This document shows, one piece after another, positions 16,640 through 37,987 of a stretch of DNA of 64,000 bases. Position numbers and translations under genes: made by a program. The notes under the pieces are model-generated. The model was not told the origin of the DNA and did not search any database. It saw only the letters and a list, made by a program, of their open reading frames with translations. Position 1 is the first letter of the stretch. Each line of letters begins with the position of its first letter. The DNA comes from Solirubrobacterales bacterium. Its GTDB lineage: Bacteria; Actinomycetota; Thermoleophilia; Solirubrobacterales; Solirubrobacteraceae. Location: NCBI GenBank assembly GCA_019244395.1, contig JAFASQ010000352.1, positions 1-64,000 on the forward strand, given 5' to 3'.

Positions 16640-17040
16640 GCCCCCACCTGCCGGCGCCCGGCGGCCCAACGGCCCTGCCGGCGCCCGGCGGCCCAACGGC
16701 CCCGCCGGCGCCACCCGGCCTGCCGGCCTCAAACCGCCCCGCCGCCCTCAAACCGCCCCGCCGGCCTCAACTGCCCGTCCTGCCGGCCCACCAGCCCACG
16801 CCGGGCGCCACCCCGCTCTGCCGGCCTCAAACCGCCCCGCAGGCCTCAAACCGCCGGTCCTGCCGGCGCCACCAGCCCACGACGGGCGCCACCCGCCCTG
16901 TCGTCGCCACCGGCCCAGATACGGGTCACGCCGGCGGCTCGCGCTGTCGGCCCTCGCCGCTCGCGCTGTCGGCCTCTCGAATCGCGCTGTCGGCCCTGCG
17001 GCTCCCGCTGTCGCCCTCGCGGATCGCGTTCGCCGGCCGC
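16640..17040. repeat. Degenerate GC-rich tandem repeats (several unit types)
   Basis: Recurring CTGCCGGCGCCCGGCGGCCCAACGGCC, CTGCCGGCCTCAAACCGCCCCG and CTCGCGCTGTCGGCC blocks. Confidence 0.8.
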
Positions 17041-17053
17041 CACCGGTCTCGCA

Positions 17054-17170
17054 CCGGTGCAAAAGTCCCCAAACTCCCCCCGCCGGCGCCCGATTTCTGC
17101 ACATAAGCACGCCGACGATGCTTATTGAACGAAAGTGCGCCGGCGGCGCCCGGTTTTGCGCCTTTTGCAT
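17054..17170. repeat. Copy 1 of ~117-bp palindromic repeat element with central hairpin
   Basis: CCGGTGCAAAAG...ATAAGCA-N9-TGCTTAT...CGAAAGT...CCGGTTTT...CTTTTGCA; shares layout and spacing with 37870-37987. Confidence 0.75.
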
Positions 17171-17269
17171 CGTCGTCGGCACCCGAGCGGCGGAACCGGC
17201 ACTGGCCGTCGCGCCCGCCCGATACTGCGCACCGAAACTCGCCGCGTCTGCCCAAGTCCGGCCCCGGCG

Positions 17270-17560
17270 TCGGCGATCCAGGACCAGGCAGGGGTCCCCG
17301 CTCGACGGCCAGCGCGCGCCGGCGGTCGACCACACGCCCCGCCGTGATCCACGTCCAAGCGCGCGCCGGCGATCCAGGACCAATCGCGCGCCGGCGATCG
17401 ACCGCCAACGCCCCACCCGCGATCCAGGACCAATCGCGCGCCGGCGATAGACCACCGCGCCCGCCGCGCGGTCCACATGCAACTCCGCGCCTGCGATCCA
17501 GGACCAATCGGGCGCCGGCGATCGATCACCAAGCCCCGCCGGCGAGCTACCGCAGCACAC
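17270..17560. repeat. ~24-25 bp tandem repeat array
   Basis: GATCCAGGACCAATCGCGCGCCGGC-like units; exact GATCCAGGACCA starts at 17275, 17371, 17421, 17494 (intervals near multiples of 24-25). Confidence 0.8.
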
Positions 17561-17625
17561 ACCCCGACCCGGCGGACCACGCCCTCCGGGCGCGCAACGA
17601 ATTCCTCCCATCCCTTGACAAATTA

Positions 17626-17666
17626 TTAGTGACTGCTAAGCTCCGCGCCTAGTTAGCAGTCACTAA
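17626..17666. promoter_or_regulatory. TetR-type operator: perfect inverted repeat TTAGTGACTGCTAA-N13-TTAGCAGTCACTAA
   Basis: Arms 17626-17639 and 17653-17666 are exact reverse complements, overlapping a TTGACA (17615-17620) promoter region, 15 nt before the MFS start. Confidence 0.85.
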
Positions 17667-17681
17667 GCAAGGGAGCGGGCT

Positions 17682-19202: not shown

Positions 19203-19805
19203 ATGGAAACCACACCCAAGGCAGTCGAGCAGACAACCCGTCAGCGCGTCCCGGCGTCCGAGCGCCGGGACGCGATCATCGAGGCAGCCGTCCACGAGTT
19301 CGCCCATGGCGGGCTGCACGGCACCCCGGTCGACCGGATCGCCCGGCGCGTCGGCGTGGCCCAGCCCTACGTGTTCAGCCTGTTTGGCAGCAAGCGTGAA
19401 CTGTTTCTCGCGGCCGTCGAGCGCGGCTGCGAGCTCATCGCCGAGACGTTCACCAAGGCGGCGGAGGAGTTCGATCCCGCCACCGCTCCGCCCGATATGG
19501 ACGTGCTGAACGCGATGGGTCAGGCCTACGTCGAGCTCCTCCAAACCAACCGCGATTACCTGATGCTCCAGCTTCACTCCTACGCCGCCTGCGACGACGA
19601 GGTGATCCGTGACCGCGTGCGGACCGCGTACGCGCGGCTGTTGACCCGCGCCGAGCGGCTCTCGCAGGCCGGGCCCGAGCGGATCGATGAGTTCTTCCGC
19701 TATGGCATGTGGCTGAACGTGGCCGCCGCCATGGAGGTACCGGATCTATCGGTCGGATGCGAATGGGTCCGCGCCGAGCAGGCCGCGCAATCCGCTGGCA
19801 TGTGA
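19203..19805 (+). CDS. TetR/AcrR family transcriptional regulator
   Basis: RRDAIIEAAVHEFAHGGLHGTPVDRIARRVGVAQPYVFSLFGSKRELFLAAVERG HTH. Confidence 0.93.
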   Translation: METTPKAVEQTTRQRVPASERRDAIIEAAVHEFAHGGLHGTPVDRIARRVGVAQPYVFSLFGSKRELFLAAVERGCELIAETFTKAAEEFDPATAPPDMDVLNAMGQAYVELLQTNRDYLMLQLHSYAACDDEVIRDRVRTAYARLLTRAERLSQAGPERIDEFFRYGMWLNVAAAMEVPDLSVGCEWVRAEQAAQSAGM

Positions 19806-36963: not shown

Positions 36964-37684
36964 CCTGGACCGCCCAGCCTTCTATGCGCTGCGCTCGGGC
37001 GGCTGGCGCGACTTGGTCACGCTGCTGCACCCTCCCTACACCGCCTGGCACCTGAGCTACGTGGCGCTAGGCGCGGCTGCCGCGCCCCACATCTACGCCA
37101 ACCGGCTGGCCGCGGCGCTCGGCGCGTTCTTCCTCGCCGTCGGCATCAGCGCCCACGCCCTCGACGAGCTCCACGGCCGCCCGCTCCAAACCAAGCTCAA
37201 GCGACCCACGCTGATCGCGCTCGCCGCGACCTCGTTCGCCGGCGCGATCGCGATCGGCGTGGCCGGCGTCTTCGTCGTCTCCCCGCTCCTCGCACCCCTC
37301 GTGCTCGCCGGCGGGCTGCTCGTCCCGGCCTACAACCTCGAGCTCGCCGGCGGCCGCCTGCACTCGGACACCTGGTTTGCCTTGGCCTGGGGCGGCTTCC
37401 CCGCCTTCACCGGCTACTTCGTCAACGCGCTGACGGTCCGCCCCGCTGGCGTGCTCGTGGCCGGCGCGTGCTGCCTGCTGAGCGCCGCCCAGCGCCAGCT
37501 GAGCACGCCCGTGCGCCGGCTGCGCCGCGGCACCACGGAGGTGATCGGACAGCAGCGCCTGCGCGACGGCAGCGTCATCGAGCTGACTCGCGCCGGGCTC
37601 TCGGCGCCGCTGGAAGGCGCGCTCCGGGCGCTCTGGATCGCGCTCGTGCTGCTCGCGATCGGCCTGATCGCGGTACGCGCTTAG
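36944..37684 (+). CDS. Polytopic membrane protein (UbiA-like in general shape, lacks canonical NDxxD)
   Basis: Multiple hydrophobic helices; overlaps methyltransferase by 20 nt. Confidence 0.75.
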   Translation: MASAPRDLDRPAFYALRSGGWRDLVTLLHPPYTAWHLSYVALGAAAAPHIYANRLAAALGAFFLAVGISAHALDELHGRPLQTKLKRPTLIALAATSFAGAIAIGVAGVFVVSPLLAPLVLAGGLLVPAYNLELAGGRLHSDTWFALAWGGFPAFTGYFVNALTVRPAGVLVAGACCLLSAAQRQLSTPVRRLRRGTTEVIGQQRLRDGSVIELTRAGLSAPLEGALRALWIALVLLAIGLIAVRA

Positions 37685-37845
37685 CCGGCCCCGGCCGCCC
37701 CCTCGGTAAGGGCATAGCCGGCCCCGGCCGCCCCCTCCGTGCGGGCATAGCCGGCCCCGGCCGTCCCCTCGGTAAGGCACAGCCGGCCCCGGCCGCCCCC
37801 TCGGTGCGGGCTTAGCCGGCCCCGGCCGCCCCGTCGGCACTCCGG
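37682..37845. repeat. 33-bp tandem repeat, 5 units, starting at the stop codon
   Basis: TAGCCGGCCCCGGCCGCCCCCTCGGTAAGGGCA at 37682, 37715, 37748, 37780 (CAG), 37813. Confidence 0.92.
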
Positions 37846-37869: not shown

Positions 37870-37987
37870 CCGGTGCATTTCGGCGGAAATCGCCCCACCC
37901 ACCGCCGTCCACCGCACATAAGCGCCTGTGAGGCGCTTATCTGCCGAAAGTCCGAGCGAGGATCCGGCTTTCGTTCGTTTTGCACCG
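37870..37987. repeat. Copy 2 of ~117-bp palindromic repeat element with central hairpin
   Basis: CCGGTGCA...ATAAGCGCC-TGTGA-GGCGCTTAT...CGAAAGT...CCGGCTTT...TTTTGCACCG. Confidence 0.75.

What the first reader, a model, noticed from the sequence alone, without database searches (positions are those of the whole stretch)
17054..17170. Two-copy ~117-bp palindromic element with a covarying central hairpin (copies 17054-17170 and 37870-37987)
Two intergenic segments 20 kb apart share an unusual layout. The left end is CCGGTGCA; after 48-49 nt comes a 23-nt hairpin. CGAAAGT starts 5 nt after the hairpin, CCGG[T/C]TTT 24-25 nt after it, and TTTTGCA exactly 38 nt after it in both copies. Most other bases differ. 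The hairpin is ATAAGCA-CGCCGACGA-TGCTTAT in one copy and ATAAGCGCC-TGTGA-GGCGCTTAT in the other: same length, with an A-T to G-C pair change (position 7/17), i.e. compensatory covariation. The outer ends form inverted repeats (copy 1 TGCAAAAG/CTTTTGCA; copy 2 CGGTGCA/TGCACCG; consensus end CGGTGCAAAAG). Each copy sits beside a GC-rich tandem-repeat block. This fits a non-autonomous mobile element, a REP/BIME-like repeat, or a structured RNA; I recognise no named family. The layout is seen directly; its function is inference.
Basis: partly seen in the sequence, partly recalled or inferred. Interest (0 to 1): 0.8.

Follow-up and report, generated by a model that had tools for sequence, protein, structure and literature searches.

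The report
REP-like four-box palindrome repeats, Solirubrobacterales
The two segments are members of a family of about 40 short symmetric DNA repeats that lie between genes, mostly at gene ends, in a soil actinobacterium; related species carry them at many of the same places in their own spelling, which suggests that a still unknown factor recognises them.

Summary
The two copies belong to a family of about 40 elements in this Solirubrobacterales MAG: 38 places match ATAAGC-N11-GCTTAT exactly, and the one-mismatch search added one more real element. Each is a symmetric ~113-117 bp block of four ~17-bp half-sites, R1> N~20 <R2 (5 nt) R3> N~20 <R4, with near-invariant boxes and free spacers. They are intergenic, enriched between convergent genes, and often just after stop codons. 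The central helix covaries; the spacers do not pair, so a long RNA fold is not supported. There are no target duplications, no Rfam match, and no Y1/RAYT transposase gene was found.

Relatives carry the family in species "dialects", often in the orthologous gap. Between the closest pair, defined box positions changed together at 14 loci while the rest of the boxes stayed fixed. Copy 2 is orthologous in the closest relative. Copy 1's gap there is ~100 bp and empty, and in another species it holds a different four-box element. Other families with the same anatomy coexist.

Best reading: a REP/BIME/REPIN-like repeat, slowly turning over, maintained by a cognate DNA-binding factor not yet identified. 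It is not a member of the defined REP families: no GTAG/CGTC tag, no RAYT found.

The parts
17054..17171 (.). Copy 1, whole four-box element (symmetric, no inherent strand)
   Evidence: model score 79.1 bits, E 7.6e-13
17056..17073 (+). Copy 1 half-site R1 GGTGCAAAAGTCCCCAAA
17093..17110 (-). Copy 1 half-site R2 (reverse: GTGCTTATGTGCAGAAAT), left arm of the central hairpin
17103..17125 (.). Copy 1 central hairpin ATAAGCA-CGCCGACGA-TGCTTAT
17118..17135 (+). Copy 1 half-site R3 ATGCTTATTGAACGAAAG, right arm of the central hairpin
17154..17171 (-). Copy 1 half-site R4 (reverse: GATGCAAAAGGCGCAAAA)
37870..37987 (.). Copy 2, whole four-box element; orthologous element present in relative G064 (L115/L271)
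37872..37889 (+). Copy 2 half-site R1 GGTGCATTTCGGCGGAAA
37908..37925 (-). Copy 2 half-site R2 (reverse: GCGCTTATGTGCGGTGGA)
37918..37940 (.). Copy 2 central hairpin ATAAGCGCC-TGTGA-GGCGCTTAT
37933..37950 (+). Copy 2 half-site R3 GCGCTTATCTGCCGAAAG
37969..37986 (-). Copy 2 half-site R4 (reverse: GGTGCAAAACGAACGAAA)
16934..17028 (.). GC-rich tandem repeat (21-nt unit) left of copy 1; neighbour, not part of the element
17311..17545 (.). GC-rich tandem repeat (25-nt unit) right of copy 1; neighbour
37671..37837 (.). GC-rich tandem repeat (33-nt unit) left of copy 2; neighbour

Best explanation
The two segments are members of a REP/BIME/REPIN-like family of intergenic palindromic repeats. Each element is two ~56-bp inverted-repeat units side by side, that is, four copies of one ~17-bp half-site in the order > < > <, held at fixed spacing (shown). 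The boxes are kept while the spacers drift, the elements gather at gene 3' ends and between convergent genes, and many stay in the same gap in related species (shown). Defined bases of all boxes have changed together across loci between close species (shown). I infer that a sequence-specific factor, which reads the half-sites as a palindrome or transient hairpin/cruciform, keeps them in register. It would do so either as a (perhaps domesticated) transposase or recombinase that occasionally makes new copies, or as a DNA-binding protein with a role at gene ends. A shift of that factor's preference would drag the dialect of all sites along. The factor itself is not identified.
For: Copy number and rigid anatomy. 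ATAAGC/GCTTAT positions at 97-100% in 39 copies while spacers are near base composition. Compensatory changes in the central helix. Intergenic location with convergent enrichment, 11 of 27 against 3 of 44 background gaps, p = 0.0013. Presence at orthologous gaps in G064, G068, G070 and G063, with alignable element sequence in several pairs, e.g. L049/L108 and L034/L101 spacer identity 0.73-0.75, p = 0.001. Concerted dialect shift in 14 ortholog pairs: box position 0 matches in only 8 of 56 comparisons while inner TGC/TTAT positions past the first two match in 92-100%. Further families with the same anatomy and other boxes in this genome and in relatives. Gap of copy 1 empty in the closest relative and filled by another four-box element in G070, so turnover occurs. 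Published REPs sit mainly between convergent and unidirectional genes (PMC3733652), and REPINs are inverted doublets of invariant 16-mers with a less conserved spacer of set length and compensatory changes (PMC3116915).
Against: No RAYT/Y1 transposase gene was found in the 93.6%-complete genome and none of the GTAG/CGTC tags of known REPs is conserved as an unpaired end. Copy number (~40 plus ~25 of a second family) is below the >100 usual for REPs (PMC2817692 abstract). No target duplication. Spacer similarity between most ortholog pairs is near background (mean 0.55 against 0.48), so for many loci replacement of one element by another in the same gap cannot be told from point-by-point change. 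Covariation between boxes other than R2/R3 is weak.
Confidence: 0.7

Rival explanations
1. Ordinary MITE: deletion derivative of an insertion sequence whose terminal inverted repeats are the outer boxes, spread by that IS and then decaying.
For: Inverted ends GGTGCAAAAC/GTTTTGCACC, discrete ~115-bp unit; some pairs of copies share spacers but not flanks, e.g. L045/L050 0.73 and window copy 2/L031 0.69; empty gap for copy 1 in G064.
Against: No target duplications; copies are shared at orthologous gaps across species; boxes do not decay while spacers do; inner boxes are more conserved than the outer ends; no gene-bearing parent was recognised among the places read.
Confidence: 0.12
2. Bidirectional transcription terminator or 3'-end stabiliser that acts as RNA, with box sequence kept because a protein or RNase reads it.
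For: 3'-end and convergent location, about half of the co-oriented copies within ~50 nt of the upstream stop; hairpin with z about -3 to -4 against shuffles for the window copies; in G071 the gene next to copy 1 ends instead in an ordinary hairpin plus T-run.
Against: Spacers show no excess pairing (z 0.02); fixed geometry and species-wide box dialect are not needed for intrinsic termination; no Rfam family.
Confidence: 0.2
3. Chromosome-organising or partition-type binding site (analogous to matS, parS or uptake sequences), not a mobile repeat at all.
For: Four half-sites at fixed spacing, strongly kept boxes, positional conservation and concerted dialect shift; neighbours are unrelated, largely housekeeping genes.
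Against: Several coexisting families per genome and gain/loss of sites are more typical of repeats; chromosomal distribution could not be mapped in this fragmented MAG.
Confidence: 0.2
4. Chance similarity of two GC-rich intergenic palindromes.
For: None after testing.
Against: 38 exact matches against 0 for the reversed control pattern; sister species carry the family at orthologous gaps.
Confidence: 0.001

Closest known systems
REPIN (REP doublet forming hairpin), Bertels and Rainey 2011, PMC3116915
   Same: ~90-120 bp symmetric element; invariant 16-17-bp inverted ends; spacer of set length with less conservation; compensatory changes; intergenic; tandem clusters; several families per genome.
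   Different: Four half-sites instead of two; no REP tag; no RAYT gene found; tens rather than hundreds of copies; shared gaps between species with a species-wide box dialect.
REP/BIME, including the CGTC-tagged REPs that lack a dedicated transposase (PMC3733652)
   Same: Palindromes in alternating orientation with a linker; mainly between convergent and unidirectional genes, close to stop codons.
   Different: No conserved GTAG or CGTC unpaired end; found here in Solirubrobacterales (Actinomycetota), a phylum that the survey text does not name.
ERIC (intergenic ~126-bp palindrome of enterobacteria; from memory)
   Same: Similar length, full-length imperfect palindrome, intergenic.
   Different: Not compared by sequence here; different lineage; ERIC is not known to me as a four-box element.
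DNA uptake sequence dialects of Neisseriaceae (PMC3630211)
   Same: Species-specific spelling of a dispersed short site, tied to a cognate protein; uptake sequences also occur as inverted pairs (second point from memory).
   Different: Here ~160 boxes in fixed four-box blocks rather than many hundreds of free 10-12-mers (numbers for uptake sequences from memory); no uptake system was tested.

Membership tests
REP/BIME (RAYT-associated) | Short palindromes, intergenic, in doublets or arrays of alternating orientation | tested here: met
REP/BIME (RAYT-associated) | Unpaired GTAG or CGTC tag at one end of the palindrome | tested here: not met
   Family-1 consensus has no conserved GTAG or CGTC; family 2 has CGTC inside a paired arm, not as an unpaired tag
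REP/BIME (RAYT-associated) | Cognate RAYT (Y1/IS200-like transposase) in the genome | tested here: not met
   PF01797 search of own genome: 0 matches at E <= 0.001, with controls ringing; the genome is 93.6% complete, so a single missing gene is possible
REPIN | Two invariant inverted 16-mers with a variable spacer of set length | tested here: met
   Each half of the element fits; family-2 spacer almost always 23 nt
REPIN | Compensatory changes that keep a hairpin | tested here: inconclusive
   Clear in the central R2/R3 helix; absent in the spacers; weak between other boxes
REPIN | Excision intermediates in reads | not testable with these tools
   No reads available
MITE | Terminal inverted repeats shared with an autonomous element | tested here: inconclusive
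   Inverted ends present; no gene-bearing relative recognised, but only pieces of the genome could be read
MITE | Target-site duplications | tested here: not met
   Not above shuffled flanks for 2-6 bp
Structured RNA family (Rfam) | Match to a curated family | tested here: not met
   0 matches at gathering score in the window
ERIC | Sequence match to the ERIC consensus | not tested
   Lead from memory only

The most novel reading that the evidence does not exclude
A genus-wide system of dispersed four-half-site DNA elements, several parallel families per genome, each read by its own cognate recognition protein, whose sites are re-spelled in concert when the protein's preference shifts: a bacterial case of genome-wide site and reader coevolution outside the known RAYT and DNA-uptake systems.
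Probability: 0.25. Interest if true: 0.82.

Novelty: new variant of a known kind. Interest (0 to 1): 0.57.

Why it matters
REP-type repeats are described mainly from Proteobacteria and a few other phyla, with RAYT transposases or no known mover. Here a Solirubrobacterales genus carries several such families with a stricter anatomy, no RAYT found in this genome, and sites held at orthologous gaps whose spelling changes genome-wide between close species.

Tried and rejected
RNA reading: Rfam gave nothing; spacers are not paired better than shuffled ones. RAYT mover: PF01797 absent. Target duplications: none. A neighbour-gene theme: 63 flanking proteins show no shared family beyond common ones such as glyoxalase, MFS and SDR. 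Spread beyond the genus: the loose hairpin pattern hits only this genome and G064 among 146 genomes of the family, and a GTDB-wide scan of the core hits this MAG group plus three apparent chance records; a box-pair pattern GCGCCAAA-N-TTTGGCGC is rare in the family. Literature searches for such repeats in Solirubrobacterales found none and none for concerted evolution of REPs. A first pair count with a mis-registered structure was discarded in favour.

Full report
They are not a two-copy pair. Within the 5.69-Mb MAG that holds the window, ATAAGC-N11-GCTTAT has 38 exact places and only two one-mismatch places, one of which is a real element, with none for the reversed control pattern. A covariance model built from 31 copies recovers the same set at E values from 2e-19 to about 1e-6 (by construction for the copies it was built from), plus one weak extra. 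The hosts are Solirubrobacterales MAGs, judged from the named records that carry the same core.

Anatomy. Registered on the hairpin, the copies share the same symmetric plan of 45 + 23 + 45 nt, give or take a base or two at either outer end. The outer ends and the hairpin arms are versions of one half-site, roughly NTGC-TTAT-GTCGCC-AAA inside and NTGC-AAAAC-GCGCC-AAA outside, arranged > < > <. This is plainest in relatives, where some outer boxes read exactly like inner ones (L145, L164). In 39 copies ATAAGC/GCTTAT is essentially invariant, AAA/TTT at 41-42 nt from the centre is about 90% or more kept, and the 20-nt spacers carry little beyond base composition.

Structure. The central helix covaries: 83.7% of cells paired against 78.9% shuffled, and C-G/G-C flips at several pairs, 0 of 500 shuffles as high. 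The spacers do not pair better than shuffled spacers (z 0.02) nor better than swapped ones. Similarity between other box pairs within an element is only weakly above shuffles. I therefore read the element as a DNA site with a palindromic or cruciform core rather than one long RNA hairpin. The rigid spacing argues the same way. This step is inference.

Location. With a home-made gene caller, 37 of 39 copies are intergenic. Among gaps of at least 130 nt, elements lie between convergent genes in 11 of 27 cases against 3 of 44 background gaps (p = 0.0013), and in co-oriented gaps they tend to lie close to the upstream stop codon. Flanking genes are ordinary and unrelated. Tandem repeats are common next to the elements. 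No target duplication is seen.

Relatives. The model finds about 30, 17, 13 and 13 copies in G064, G070, G068 and G063, each with its own box spelling. Genes flanking this genome's elements very often flank elements in the relatives, in many cases on both sides. Several ortholog pairs align straight through the element. In 14 pairs with the closest relative, G064, inner-box TGC/TTAT positions past the first two are 92-100% identical, while position 0 of the boxes agrees in only 8 of 56 cases and inner position 1 in 3 of 28; the replacements run in the same direction (G to A/C, C to T) in all four boxes at nearly all loci. The caveat is that spacer identity of most pairs is near background (0.55 against 0.48), with clear homology in only a few, such as L049/L108 and L034/L101. 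Replacement of whole elements in the same gap is therefore not excluded for the rest.

The window copies themselves. Copy 2 has an orthologous element 23 bp after the same gene in G064. Copy 1 does not: the same gap in G064 is about 100 bp with no element, in G070 it holds a four-box element of a different family soon after the stop codon, and in G071 the gene ends in an ordinary terminator hairpin with a T-run. Elements are thus gained or lost now and then.

Other families. A second family with box GTGTGCATGACGCGCCAC, a spacer almost always 23 nt long, total length ~117 nt and linker CAGAGGATCCTG is present in roughly 25 places in this genome and about 30 in G064. Related spellings occur in G084, G068 and G070, and distinct ones in G067 and G075, some in arrays at 60-61 bp.

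Comparison. By anatomy and placement this works like REP/BIME/REPIN repeats (PMC3116915, PMC3733652). By membership it is not one of the defined REP families, because the GTAG/CGTC tag is absent and no Y1/RAYT gene was found. The concerted dialect resembles DNA uptake sequence dialects (PMC3630211) in pattern only. I classify it as a new variant of a known kind.

Noticed in passing
G000 loci L212-L226 (e.g. L213:2030-2153, L214:2065-2188): Second four-box family (box GTGTGCATGACGCGCCAC, linker CAGAGGATCCTG), roughly 25 places, sometimes directly after a stop codon; one array of at least four units at 61 bp (C64).
   Followed up: partly
L027, L029, L032, L040, L057, L058, L060: A subset of copies sits inside a larger duplicated stretch of 200-680 bp (87-96% identical), mosaic and often near contig ends.
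   Followed up: partly
L258 (G070:C152), just after the gene end: Third kind of four-box element (box TGCAGAACCTGCCA) in the gap orthologous to copy 1.
   Followed up: no
L234, L242, L249 (G075); L232, L247 (G067); L248 (G070): Further double inverted repeats with other boxes, some in tandem arrays, in the same genus.
   Followed up: no
window 17620-17680: Imperfect inverted repeat TTATTAGTGACTGCTAA...TTAGCAGTCACTAA upstream of the MFS transporter gene, conserved in G064 and G070; looks like an operator, perhaps for the regulator-like ORF at 19203-19805.
   Followed up: no
L025:3994-4067: Composite element with two central hairpins 51 bp apart between one pair of outer ends.
   Followed up: no
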